A stretch of 64,000 nucleotides of DNA. Origin: Terriglobia bacterium. GTDB lineage: Bacteria > Acidobacteriota > Terriglobia > JAJPHL01. Made by a program: the position numbers and the translations under genes. Position 1 is the stretch's first letter, and each line of letters opens with the position of its first letter. This document shows positions 57,526 through 61,065 of this stretch, one piece after another. A model generated the notes under the pieces. That model was not told where the DNA came from. It searched no databases and worked only from the letters and a program-made list of their open reading frames with translations. The stretch lies in the NCBI GenBank assembly GCA_021325275.1, contig JAJPHL010000045.1, positions 62,001-126,000 on the forward strand, given 5' to 3'.

Positions 57526-58748
57526 AAAAAGCAACCGCCGATGAACGCCGATGCACGCCGATTCGAGCAGCGGACTCCATCGGCGTTTATCTGCGTTCGT
57601 CGGCGGTTGCTTTTCTGTTTTGCTTTTCCTGTTCGTTTATCCAAGCACAGGATTGGCCCCAGTTTCGCGGCAACCCGACACTCACCGGCGTCGCGACATC
57701 GTCGTTACCCGACACACTGAAATTGCTCTGGACCTACGATGCCGCCGAAAACGAAAAAGACAAGATGGACGCGTCGATCGAGTCATCCGCGGCGATTGTG
57801 GGCGGCGTGGTCTACGTCGGATCGATGAGCGGATACTTGCTGGCGATCGATCTCGCGACAGGAAAAGAAAAGTGGAAATACAAAGCCGCGCAACAGATCG
57901 AAGAATCGTCGCCGGCGGTGGCGAGCGGCACGGTTTATGTGGGCGATCTCTCAGGCGTTTTCCATGCCGTCGACGCGGTAACCGGAAAAGCGAAGTGGAC
58001 CTTCAAGACGGGCGGGGAAATCAAATCGTCGCCTGTGGTATTCACTGAGGGCGGCGTGGAGAAAGTGCTGATCGGCTCCTACGACCAGTCGCTTTATTGC
58101 TTGAACGCCAAGACAGGTGCGGTCCTCTGGAAGTTTTCCATCAACGGTCCCGTGCACGCGACGCCTTCGATCAACAACGGCGTCGCGTATCTCACCGGAT
58201 GCGACGAAGTCTTTTACGGCATTCGCCTGACCGACGGAAAAGAAGTGCAGCACATTGCGTCGGGCGCTTATACGGGCGCGTCGCCCGCGTTGTTGCTCGC
58301 GGGACCGCAGTCGCAGATGGCGTTTTTCGGTACATTCAACAACGACGTGGTCGGCGTAAACCTCGTCACCAAGCGAATCATGTGGCGCTACGAAAATCCC
58401 ACGCGTCACTTTCCGTTCTACGCCTCGGCGGCGATCACGCCGTCGCTCGTGATTGTCGGTGGCCGCGACAAATCTGTTCACGCACTCGTGCCGAAGCCCG
58501 GCACGGTGAAAGGCAAAGCTGCGTGGACCTTCGCGACGAAAGCGCGCGTGGAATCGTCGCCCGCCATTGCGGGATCGCGAATTTACGTGGGCTCGAACGA
58601 CGGCATTCTATATGTGCTCGATCTCGCGACCGGAAAGAAGCTCTGGGAGTTTACCGCCGGCGCTCCGATTTCGGCGTCGCCCGCCATCGGAGGCGGCCGC
58701 CTCGTGGTCGGCGATCAGGACGGAAAGCTTTACTGCTTCGGTGGATAA
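57513..58748 (+). CDS. Exported PQQ-like beta-propeller protein whose N-terminus is encoded by a hairpin repeat
   Basis: 411 residues from ATG 57513, the only reasonable start, which overlaps the dehydrogenase gene by 13 bases. Residues about 5-34 are encoded by the hairpin repeat at 57527-57614. The right arm supplies I-G-V-Y-L-R-S-S-A-V-A-F-L-F, and the hydrophobic run continues C-F-S-C-S-F-I-Q-A to a likely cleavage site before Q-D-W-P-Q-F-R-G, the class motif. The propeller follows (L-A-I-D-L-A-T-G-K-E-K-W, Y-C-L-N-A-K-T-G-A-V-L-W). The signal peptide thus has an unusually long n-region. An alternative is that a non-AUG start inside the repeat is used. Confidence 0.85.
   Translation: MGILKKATADERRCTPIRAADSIGVYLRSSAVAFLFCFSCSFIQAQDWPQFRGNPTLTGVATSSLPDTLKLLWTYDAAENEKDKMDASIESSAAIVGGVVYVGSMSGYLLAIDLATGKEKWKYKAAQQIEESSPAVASGTVYVGDLSGVFHAVDAVTGKAKWTFKTGGEIKSSPVVFTEGGVEKVLIGSYDQSLYCLNAKTGAVLWKFSINGPVHATPSINNGVAYLTGCDEVFYGIRLTDGKEVQHIASGAYTGASPALLLAGPQSQMAFFGTFNNDVVGVNLVTKRIMWRYENPTRHFPFYASAAITPSLVIVGGRDKSVHALVPKPGTVKGKAAWTFATKARVESSPAIAGSRIYVGSNDGILYVLDLATGKKLWEFTAGAPISASPAIGGGRLVVGDQDGKLYCFGG
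57527..57614. repeat. Long hairpin repeat element, copy 2
   Basis: The left arm 57527-57562 and right arm 57579-57614 pair at 32 of 36 positions around a 16-base loop. It belongs to the same family as 24011-24095 (33 of 36 identical in each arm). It begins 2 bases after the dehydrogenase stop codon. Unlike copy 1 it lies within an open frame and is translated as part of the following gene. Confidence 0.85.
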
Positions 58749-58872
58749 TCCAGCCGCCCCGGGCCAACAGGGAACAACAGGTATGCAACGAGACTGATAT
58801 GCAATGAGAAAAGTCGTTCAGTCGACTGCAATGAGGTAAGATAGCGTTGAGCAGCAATAGCCAGATAAGGCA

Positions 58873-59565
58873 ATGTCTAACTTGCAACTGCACATACCCG
58901 AATACCTTCACCCAGCCTTGAAGCAGCTAATGGCGTTATCCGAGAGTGACTCGGAGCGTTTAGTGGCCGCGCTAACCGAAGAGAAGCCTGCCTTTCTTAG
59001 CACCGGCCTGGCCGCGCAGGTTGCTGAACGTTCTCAGTTAGATCCCGTATTGGTCTCGCGATTGACGGACGCATTAACATCTGTCCGATCCGTGTGGGAT
59101 TCGACGCATGTGCCGTTGGAAGCATTTCTCGGGGTTTTTTGCGCCGCTCTAGAGCAGCAGGGCCTCAAACCTCAAGATGACGCGACTTGGGATCGTTTTC
59201 AACGAACGTTAGGAATCTTGCTCAGTCACGAAGGGGCCCTCGCCGCTGCCTCGAAAGCCTTGAGCGTCGTAGCAGATCTTCGCAGCATCTTTCAGGACGC
59301 GCGAATTCTAACGGATCTAAGGCCGGTTTTTAGGCAAGATGCAACGGAACGGCCTTTTTCATTTGCAATTATTCATACACTGAGGATAACGTTTCATCAC
59401 GAAGGTCACAATCGTCGCTTCTTTGTTGCTCTTGACGACCACGACGTGTTGAGGCTCAGGCGAATTCTCGAGCGAGCCGAAGAAAAATCCCAAACGCTCC
59501 GATCGCTCGCTGACTCCGCGAACATGCCTATTCTCAAAATTGAACCACAGGAGGGTCCATGGTAG
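58873..59565 (+). CDS. Unknown protein, first gene of a three-gene cassette
   Basis: 230 residues, soluble, no signal peptide. The N-terminal 150 residues are helical (L-K-Q-L-M-A-L-S-E-S-D-S-E-R-L). The C-terminal 70 residues form a sheet-then-helix unit (F-A-I-I-H-T-L-R-I-T-F-H-H-E-G, F-F-V-A-L-D-D-H-D-V-L-R-L, long charged helix) that in outline recalls the eukaryotic COMM domain; this is a visual impression only. Codon use is less G+C-biased than that of the flanking genes. The 124 bases before it (58749-58872) hold three GCAAYGAG words and no clear promoter. It overlaps the next gene by 7 bases. Confidence 0.75.
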   Translation: MSNLQLHIPEYLHPALKQLMALSESDSERLVAALTEEKPAFLSTGLAAQVAERSQLDPVLVSRLTDALTSVRSVWDSTHVPLEAFLGVFCAALEQQGLKPQDDATWDRFQRTLGILLSHEGALAAASKALSVVADLRSIFQDARILTDLRPVFRQDATERPFSFAIIHTLRITFHHEGHNRRFFVALDDHDVLRLRRILERAEEKSQTLRSLADSANMPILKIEPQEGPW

Positions 59566-60101
59566 CACCTCAAATGGCATGGCCCATTTCGGAACCAGTA
59601 ATCGCTGCGCGCCAGCAGATGCTGGAGCAACTATACGCTCATAGGACCATCTCTCGCAGGCCGGTGGCAACGGGCAATACAAAAATGTGGACCTCCAGGT
59701 GTTTCGGAGCAGGCGCGGAGAGGAGCTTGAAACGCGTTCGAGATAGTATCGAGGCTTCTCGCTATGTCCTTGCGTTAAGTCGCGATTGGGACGGTGAGGG
59801 GGCGACTCCGATTGCTGTCGAGACATGGCGGCGGGCGACCGAGTTTTTGTCGAGGAACGCTGAGGCATTATGGGCCGCGCACGGTGTTCAGGTCTATGCA
59901 CCGCGAATCCTACCTGTTCCAGACGGTTCGCTTGACATCCATTGGAAAACGATCAGGCGGGAATTGCTTGTGAACATTCCTCGATGCCCAAATGATCGGG
60001 CTAAATATTATGGCGACGACCAGAATGGGCGCCAAGTCGTCGAAGGAGACCTGGATACAACGGCGGCGAATCACTGGCTACTAATGTGGCTGACTGAGTA
60101 A
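59559..60101 (+). CDS. Unknown protein, second gene of the cassette
   Basis: 180 residues from ATG 59559, which overlaps the previous stop codon (ATGGTAG). The centre reads L-S-R-D-W-D-G-E-G-A-T-P-I, a motif I recall from scattered uncharacterised proteins of many bacteria, followed by helices and a beta-rich part (G-S-L-D-I-H-W-K, L-L-V-N-I-P). No membrane segment or known catalytic signature. G+C is lower than around it. Tight packing suggests it works with both neighbours. Confidence 0.72.
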   Translation: MVAPQMAWPISEPVIAARQQMLEQLYAHRTISRRPVATGNTKMWTSRCFGAGAERSLKRVRDSIEASRYVLALSRDWDGEGATPIAVETWRRATEFLSRNAEALWAAHGVQVYAPRILPVPDGSLDIHWKTIRRELLVNIPRCPNDRAKYYGDDQNGRQVVEGDLDTTAANHWLLMWLTE

Positions 60102-60104
60102 TGG

Positions 60105-60491
60105 ATGGATTGGCAGACGGAACTGATTCCAGATTCAGCGAGTCTCTTTCGGCGCGTTCATCGCTCTCTCTTGCGGGGCGACGAAGTCACTACGGGTGCG
60201 TTTCAAAACTCGAAAGGTGAGAGTGGAATGTCAGTTGACTGGGCTGCCTACTCATCTGCTGAGGAATCGAGGAATCGGGCCAAGAATCCCAGTGACAACG
60301 CCATTATTAGGCTTGTCGCAGGGCAAGTTCGTCAGGTACCTAATCAGTCCGTACAGCATTCGCCTATCGACGCCAACCGGTCTCATACCACCGTCGAAGG
60401 GGAAAAGACTCCAAGAGTACGCCTGGCTCTTCAAAGGATATCGTCTCTGGTGATTCCAATCGAACCGCCTGCTCGCTCGGAAAGCACATAG
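60105..60491 (+). CDS. Unknown protein, third gene of the cassette
   Basis: 128 residues from ATG 60105, 3 bases after the previous stop. It opens L-I-P-D-S-A-S-L-F-R-R-V-H, then A-F-Q-N-S-K-G-E-S-G-M-S-V-D-W and, after a helix, I-R-L-V-A-G-Q-V-R and H-T-T-V-E-G-E-K-T. The order R-R-x-H, M-S-V-D, a G-x-V/A-R helix and a late H-x-x-V-x-G-x-K motif resembles an unnamed small-protein family I have seen in many bacteria. The function is unknown and there is no signal peptide. The cassette ends here; the next gene is convergent. Confidence 0.7.
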   Translation: MDWQTELIPDSASLFRRVHRSLLRGDEVTTGAFQNSKGESGMSVDWAAYSSAEESRNRAKNPSDNAIIRLVAGQVRQVPNQSVQHSPIDANRSHTTVEGEKTPRVRLALQRISSLVIPIEPPARSEST

Positions 60492-60531
60492 CTCTCGTGG
60501 GCAGCGTAAGCCACGTAGCATTGGAGCACGG

Positions 60532-61065
60532 CTATTTCGGATCGTAACCGACAAACGCGTCGAGATACGTATTGCCCTTGTACTCCATGTCGCGATGGAT
60601 CCCGATATCCGATGTGTAGTACGCGTGCACTGTTTGCTTCTTCAGTTCGACAAAGAACTCTCCTTCCATCGTTTTGGGTTCGTCATCATCCGGCGAGATG
60701 CTTTCGAGCAGTTCAATGCGAGTCTTGGGAGTCGCCTCGATGAACGACACGTTGTATCGGCTGTCGCAGAGGTTGTCGATGAGGCGCAATCCGTCGCGCC
60801 ATATTTGCCGCGGCTCCGGCTCCCACACGTCTGCCAACCATGTATCAATGTACGCCGCGACTTTCGCGGCGCGCGCACCGGGAGAATGCGCGTCCGTGGG
60901 AATAATCATCTCGGTCAATTCGTCGACGAGCGCGAACTCAGCGGGCGTGAAGAACTTCGGCGCGTGCGCGAAGACCACTTTCGGCAGCGGCACACGCTTG
61001 GCTTGCGCCGCAGCCAGCGGAGCAGAGGCCGCCATCTTCAACGCATCGCGACGCGTCCGTTTCAT
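60532..61065 (-). CDS. Gluconate 2-dehydrogenase subunit 3 family protein
   Basis: 177 residues with a Tat-like leader (R-T-R-R-D-A-L-K-M-A-A-S-A-P-L-A-A-A). Family text: F-F-T-P-A-E-F-A-L-V-D-E-L-T-E-M-I-I-P-T-D, G-A-R-A-A-K-V-A-A-Y-I-D, and Y-K-G-N-T-Y-L-D-A-F near the end. This is the small, non-catalytic subunit that helps export and mature a GMC-type flavin dehydrogenase. It overlaps the GMC gene by 4 bases, so the two should form one enzyme in the periplasm. Confidence 0.9.
   Translation of the reverse strand: MKRTRRDALKMAASAPLAAAQAKRVPLPKVVFAHAPKFFTPAEFALVDELTEMIIPTDAHSPGARAAKVAAYIDTWLADVWEPEPRQIWRDGLRLIDNLCDSRYNVSFIEATPKTRIELLESISPDDDEPKTMEGEFFVELKKQTVHAYYTSDIGIHRDMEYKGNTYLDAFVGYDPK

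What the first reader, a model, noticed from the sequence alone, without database searches (positions are those of the whole stretch)
58873..60491. Compact cassette of three unknown soluble proteins with lower G+C
Three genes are joined by a 7-base overlap and a 3-base gap, all without signal peptides or known motifs, in DNA visibly less G+C-rich than the flanks. The layout resembles a mobile functional module such as a defence, toxin or regulatory system. Protein 1 ends in a COMM-like sheet-helix unit; proteins 2 and 3 carry motifs (D-W-D-G-E-G-A; M-S-V-D) that I recall from unnamed families. This is the strongest candidate for an undescribed system in the window.
Basis: partly seen in the sequence, partly recalled or inferred. 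Interest (0 to 1): 0.62.

Follow-up and report, generated by a model that had tools for sequence, protein, structure and literature searches.

The report
COMMD-like ring protein's three-gene cassette
A small, probably horizontally acquired cassette in an acidobacterial genome joins a bacterial relative of the eukaryotic COMMD ring proteins to two conserved small proteins; homologues in other phyla and in virus-like contigs keep the same three genes together and look like interchangeable toxin or defence modules.

Summary
In detail: three genes (A 58873-59565, B 59559-60101, C 60105-60491), a 7-base overlap, a 3-base gap, and the lowest-G+C stretch of its size in the window (53.7% against 60.4%). 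The set is real and conserved. The order A-B-C recurs in other Acidobacteriota, Deltaproteobacteria, Pedobacter and three IMG/VR contigs. Protein A is a bacterial COMMD-like protein: its family profile finds PDB 9q6a at E 9.6e-39, and its AlphaFold model matches that octamer subunit (TM 0.73-0.79) and, more weakly, the human Commander COMMD ring. B and C are homologous to proteins found behind TIGR04255 genes, and each weakly matches one partner of PADLOC's candidate system PDC-M32. The parts are interchangeable. A also leads cassettes ending in DUF7689, a domain that in one relative tips an RHS protein. B-C also follow TIGR04255 or other first genes, and a TIGR04255 gene also leads a MazF cassette. 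B occurs alone in two phages. Best reading: a toxin-antitoxin-like or abortive-infection module with A as oligomeric scaffold or sensor, B as adaptor or antitoxin, and C as effector. The architecture is shown; toxicity, the B-C relation and phage defence are inferred. Most homologues do not sit in defence islands.

The parts
58873..59565 (+). gene A: COMMD-like protein, 230 aa; N-terminal bundle of seven helices, then a COMM-type domain (three strands and a long helix)
   Evidence: profile match to PDB 9q6a/9q6c/9q6d, E 9.6e-39; single sequence E 3.3e-10; AF2 model pLDDT 83; Foldseek to 9q6a E 1.5e-11 and to human COMMD ring chains E about 1e-6 to 1e-4
59559..60101 (+). gene B: DWDG-motif protein, 180 aa, variable N-terminus and conserved core; middle gene, inferred adaptor or antitoxin
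   Evidence: homologues in the same position in all A-B-C loci; PADLOC PDC-M32A C-terminal part E 5.6e-4; hhalign 97% to TIGR04255-linked B
60105..60491 (+). gene C: MSVDW-motif protein, 128 aa; inferred effector
   Evidence: homologues; AF2 model pLDDT 92.5; PADLOC PDC-M32B E 9e-3; hhalign 97% to TIGR04255-linked C
59549..59554 (+). Shine-Dalgarno motif AGGAGG of gene B, inside the end of gene A
   Evidence: sequence
58784..58835 (+). three short direct repeats TGCAAYGAG upstream of gene A (58784, 58800, 58827); possible operator, may be chance
   Evidence: sequence; two of the three reported
58749..60531 (.). interval between two convergent native genes that holds the low-G+C cassette

Best explanation
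The cassette is one member of a combinatorial family of three-gene conflict modules. Gene 1 encodes an oligomeric scaffold or sensor: here a COMMD-like protein, expected to form a ring through its COMM domain; in relatives a TIGR04255 protein or another type. Gene 2 (B, the DWDG family) is a partner that binds and restrains, or couples, the effector. Gene 3 (C) is the effector. Most likely mechanism: the complex is silent while intact; a cue such as phage infection changes or disrupts it and frees C, which stops growth, as in toxin-antitoxin or abortive infection. Shown here: A has the COMMD fold; the three genes are conserved together across phyla; genes 1 and 3 are exchanged between cassettes; the cassette has foreign composition; relatives lie on virus-like contigs. 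Inferred: ring assembly of this particular A, B as antitoxin, C as toxin, and the trigger.
For: (1) COMMD-like A. (2) A-B-C in the same order in L010/L003, L016/L002, L013, L012, L017, L020 and in IMG/VR contigs L032, L033, L106. (3) In a search of 396 phylum genomes with the A profile, all 5 hits start a three-gene set: one A-B-C (this window), three A-'HPSYQ/IIGxG'-DUF7689, one A-212 aa-154 aa. Two further A-'HPSYQ'-DUF7689 sets are in L050 and L053. (4) B-C also follow TIGR04255 (L028, L030, L035), a short DUF3467-like protein (L014, L025) or another first gene (L019, L031). (5) Third genes include effector-like families: PemK/MazF behind TIGR04255 in L040, E 1.7e-11, and DUF7689, which in L055 forms the C-terminal tip of an RHS-repeat protein, the usual toxin place. 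(6) B and C each hit one partner of the same PADLOC candidate, PDC-M32, and are strongly homologous to the TIGR04255-linked B and C (97%). (7) Solitary B in two phages, as expected if B neutralises C. (8) Low G+C; one relative (L035) next to a tyrosine integrase on a viral contig.
Against: No toxicity or defence data. C has no significant fold match (best PDB E 0.5, best BFVD E 0.016) and no proven catalytic motif. Most loci have housekeeping neighbours. The PADLOC hits are weak, and PDC-M32 itself is unproven. DUF7689 is inferred, not shown, to be a toxin. The TIGR04255-MazF pairing rests on one locus, and the HEPN match in L039 (E 0.043) is below Pfam's cut-off.
Confidence: 0.5

Rival explanations
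1. A dedicated anti-phage system in which the COMMD-like ring senses a phage product and B-C carry out the response, not a selfish toxin-antitoxin pair.
For: PADLOC PDC-M32 matches; complete cassettes on virus-like contigs L031, L032, L033, L035, L106; solitary B in two phages as possible counter-defence; defence-like neighbours in L014 (AriA-like AAA ATPase) and L035 (methyltransferase).
Against: Most cellular loci lie among housekeeping genes such as transketolase, GMP synthase and recA; nothing defence-like lies near the window cassette.
Confidence: 0.3
2. A selfish toxin-antitoxin-like addiction element with no host benefit, kept by post-segregational killing.
For: Sporadic distribution (the A profile finds 5 of 396 phylum genomes), low G+C, MazF in the third place of one related cassette.
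Against: Three genes with a large scaffold-like first protein are unusual for simple addiction modules; no match of B, C or A to PLSDB plasmids in the searches run.
Confidence: 0.2
3. C is an enzyme of the ADP-ribosyltransferase-like group (RES or Tpt1 type) that consumes NAD+ or modifies RNA or protein (a sub-hypothesis about C, compatible with the main model).
For: Weak Foldseek hits to a phage RNA 2'-phosphotransferase and to the RES toxin VPA0770 (RES NADase according to PMC12204516); conserved R, S, R, H, R positions.
Against: E-values 0.8-2.2, not significant; profile-profile comparison of C with RES proteins shows nothing.
Confidence: 0.15
4. A metabolic or protein-quality complex, unrelated to conflict, using the COMMD-like ring as a scaffold.
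For: Eukaryotic COMMD rings scaffold a trafficking complex; most cassettes lie among housekeeping genes.
Against: Sporadic distribution, foreign composition, exchangeable partners, virus-borne copies.
Confidence: 0.15

Closest known systems
Bacterial COMMD-like protein MBK5214510 (PDB 9q6a, 9q6c, 9q6d; Flavobacteriaceae; octamer)
   Same: same family as protein A by profile (E 9.6e-39) and by fold (TM 0.73-0.79)
   Different: only the single protein is deposited; I found no paper on it and could not read its operon, so whether it has B and C partners is unknown here
Eukaryotic COMMD1-10 ring of the Commander (CCC) complex
   Same: helical N-terminal part plus COMM domain in the same order; Foldseek E about 1e-6 to 1e-4
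   Different: about 10-16% identity; not recognised by any Pfam COMM model; no resemblance of B and C to the CCDC22 and CCDC93 partners was seen (no PDB sequence hits)
PADLOC PDC-M32 (M32A, M32B), a phage defence candidate
   Same: B resembles the last third of M32A, C resembles M32B; PDC-M32 is reported in a Sinorhizobium prophage (PMC12429752)
   Different: M32A is a 375-residue single protein whose first 240 or so residues find no match in A, B or the tested TIGR04255 proteins; this cassette has a separate COMMD-like gene
TIGR04255-led operons with DWDG and MSV proteins (L028, L030, L035)
   Same: homologous second and third genes (97% hhalign probability), same order
   Different: first gene of a different family (TIGR04255) instead of the COMMD-like protein

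Membership tests
COMMD / COMMD-like | helical N-terminal domain followed by a COMM domain of three strands and a C-terminal helix | tested here: met
   AF2 model: seven helices, three strands, long helix; Foldseek to 9q6a and human COMMD chains
COMMD / COMMD-like | profile-level sequence homology to a solved COMMD-like protein | tested here: met
   E 9.6e-39 over almost the whole protein
COMMD / COMMD-like | match to the curated Pfam COMM domain model | tested here: not met
   no COMM hit up to E 10; hence 'COMMD-like', not a member of the curated eukaryotic family
COMMD / COMMD-like | ring or dimer assembly through the COMM domain | not testable with these tools
   no complex prediction available; inferred from the octameric relative
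PADLOC PDC-M32 | M32A over its whole length | tested here: not met
   only M32A positions 284-362 of 375 match B
PADLOC PDC-M32 | M32B partner | tested here: inconclusive
   C E 9e-3 over positions 4-55 of 123; a linked C from L030 matches 2-106 at E 1.3e-3
toxin-antitoxin system | toxic product neutralised by a partner | not testable with these tools
   needs expression tests
toxin-antitoxin system | compact operon with sporadic distribution | tested here: met
defence-island system | neighbours enriched in defence genes | tested here: not met
   75 flanking ORFs of 14 loci: few defence-type hits, mostly housekeeping; no statistical control run
RES / ART toxins (for C) | detectable sequence or fold similarity | tested here: inconclusive
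   non-significant Foldseek hits, hhalign negative

The most novel reading that the evidence does not exclude
COMMD-like rings are a bacterial conflict platform: interchangeable two-gene effector modules plug into a COMMD-like (or TIGR04255) sensor scaffold, phages counter it with stand-alone copies of the B protein, and the eukaryotic Commander COMMD ring descends from such a mobile immune or toxin component.
Probability: 0.2. Interest if true: 0.9.

Novelty: new variant of a known kind. Interest (0 to 1): 0.62.

Why it matters
COMMD proteins are known mainly from the eukaryotic endosomal Commander complex, and their origin is unclear. Finding a full-length COMMD-like protein as the fixed first gene of a conserved bacterial cassette, with exchangeable effector-like partners, gives it a genomic setting and makes its function testable. 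It also links PADLOC's unexplained PDC-M32 candidate, TIGR04255 and DUF7689 into one combinatorial scheme, and names a possible phage counter-measure (solitary B).

Tried and rejected
Pfam, NCBIfam and PHROGs: nothing significant for A, B or C. Single-sequence scan of genome contigs with C: nothing; an alignment was needed. Plasmid searches with A, B and C: no matches. Phage searches with C: no matches. RES/ART membership of C by profile comparison: not supported. Tpt1/KptA could not be compared, because no relative encoded it. The idea that all first genes share the COMM unit: not supported by hhalign for the DUF3467-like and L019/L031 first genes, though those were single sequences. The idea that M32A is a TIGR04255-B fusion: not supported, the TIGR04255 proteins tested did not match M32A. 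Empty-site test: the closest relative of the neighbouring GMC oxidoreductase gene lies in G052, but synteny ends there, so no empty site could be read. Papers on bacterial COMMD-like proteins, TIGR04255 or DUF7689: none in the library.

Full report
WHAT IS THERE. The window lies in a 6.9-Mb genome whose nearest relatives are Acidobacteriota (G000). Between two convergent native genes (a PQQ-type propeller protein ending at 58748 and a gene ending at 60532 on the minus strand) lie three plus-strand genes: A 58873-59565, B 59559-60101, C 60105-60491. A and B overlap by 7 bases, and B and C are 3 bases apart. B has a strong Shine-Dalgarno motif inside the end of A. The stretch is 53.7% G+C against 60.4% for the window, the lowest of its size, and third-position G+C is 51-56% against 72-77% in neighbouring genes.

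PROTEIN A IS COMMD-LIKE. Pfam does not recognise it, but a profile of ten homologues matches PDB 9q6a/9q6c/9q6d, 'COMMD-like protein MBK5214510', at E 9.6e-39, and the single sequence does so at E 3.3e-10. The AlphaFold model (mean pLDDT 83, pTM 0.59) has seven helices, three strands and a long C-terminal helix, the order found in COMMD proteins. Foldseek gives the bacterial octamer subunits first (E 1.5e-11, TM 0.73-0.79), then chains of the human Commander COMMD ring (E about 1e-6 to 1e-4). Low whole-chain TM-scores to the human chains may reflect a different angle between the two domains (inference). No paper on bacterial COMMD-like proteins was found in the library.

PROTEINS B AND C. Neither has a significant Pfam, NCBIfam, PHROG or PDB sequence relative. 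In PADLOC, B matches the last third of PDC-M32A (E 5.6e-4) and C matches PDC-M32B (E 9e-3), the two partners of one candidate system. These are weak hits. They are backed by profile comparison: the B and C families match the B and C found behind TIGR04255 genes with 97% probability (E about 1e-11), and one of those C proteins matches PDC-M32B along its length. The C model is confident (pLDDT 92.5) but has no significant match in the PDB or BFVD. The faint hits to a phage 2'-phosphotransferase and to the RES toxin VPA0770 (an NADase-type toxin according to PMC12204516) are a lead only; hhalign against RES proteins is negative.

CONSERVATION AND EXCHANGE. The order A-B-C recurs in Acidobacteriota (L010/L003, L013, L016/L002, L017), Deltaproteobacteria (L012), Pedobacter (L020) and three IMG/VR contigs (L032, L033, L106). 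B-C occur with other first genes: TIGR04255 (L028, L030, L035), DUF3467-like (L014, L025), or another type (L019, L031). L015 has B-C with no recognisable first gene. A occurs with other second and third genes: a 'HPSYQ/IIGxG' protein plus DUF7689 in L022, L023, L050, L053 and L100, and two unknown proteins in L024. In a search of 396 phylum genomes with the A profile, all five hits begin a three-gene set. The third place therefore looks like the exchangeable effector. DUF7689 in L055 is the C-terminal tip of an RHS-repeat protein, the usual place of a toxin domain, and behind a TIGR04255 gene in L040 the third gene is a PemK/MazF toxin (E 1.7e-11).

MOBILITY AND CONTEXT. Cassettes of this kind lie on virus-like contigs, one next to a tyrosine integrase (L035). 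But most chromosomal relatives sit alone among housekeeping genes. Of 75 flanking ORFs at 14 loci, few match PADLOC models, mainly an AriA-like ATPase in L014 and a methyltransferase in L035. A defence-island association is not supported; no statistical control was run. The cassette is rare (5 of 396 phylum genomes carry A).

A POSSIBLE COUNTER-MEASURE. Two phages carry only the conserved core of B, with no A or C within about 4-5 kb: a 636-kb phage (LR756504.1, L101; hmmsearch E 2e-38) and an 86-kb IMG/VR contig (L034; E 3e-21). If B restrains C, such phages could use B as an antitoxin. This is an inference from two genomes.

HOW IT PROBABLY WORKS. A forms an oligomeric scaffold or sensor (ring assembly inferred from the octameric relative); B couples or restrains; C acts. 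A cue frees C and growth stops. The fold of A, the gene association, the exchange of partners and the foreign composition are shown. Toxicity of C, neutralisation by B, the trigger and any phage defence are inferred.

VERDICT. A real, conserved cassette with an unexpected COMMD-like first protein. It is a variant linked to known but unexplained candidate families, not a proven defence system.

Noticed in passing
L101 4001-4378 (LR756504.1); L034 5001-5453: Stand-alone B core proteins in two phages, without A or C nearby; possible phage-borne antitoxin or decoy.
   Followed up: partly
L040 1-555, minus strand: TIGR04255 gene followed by a 96-aa protein ending DWDAPGMELYD and a PemK/MazF toxin, with overlapping genes.
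   Followed up: partly
L055 (G053:C5): DUF7689 domain at the C-terminal tip of a 4777-aa RHS-repeat open frame, suggesting that DUF7689 is a toxin domain.
   Followed up: partly
L037; L041 and L059: TIGR04255-DWDG cassettes lie next to gyrB in G055 and G091, with gyrA downstream (gyrase identity from reading the sequence).
   Followed up: no
L036, L045, L047: TIGR04255 genes followed by a variable protein and a third protein with 'QGxxL' and 'CDL' motifs, another possible effector type.
   Followed up: no
window 58784-58835: Three direct repeats TGCAAYGAG just upstream of gene A; possible operator of the cassette.
   Followed up: no
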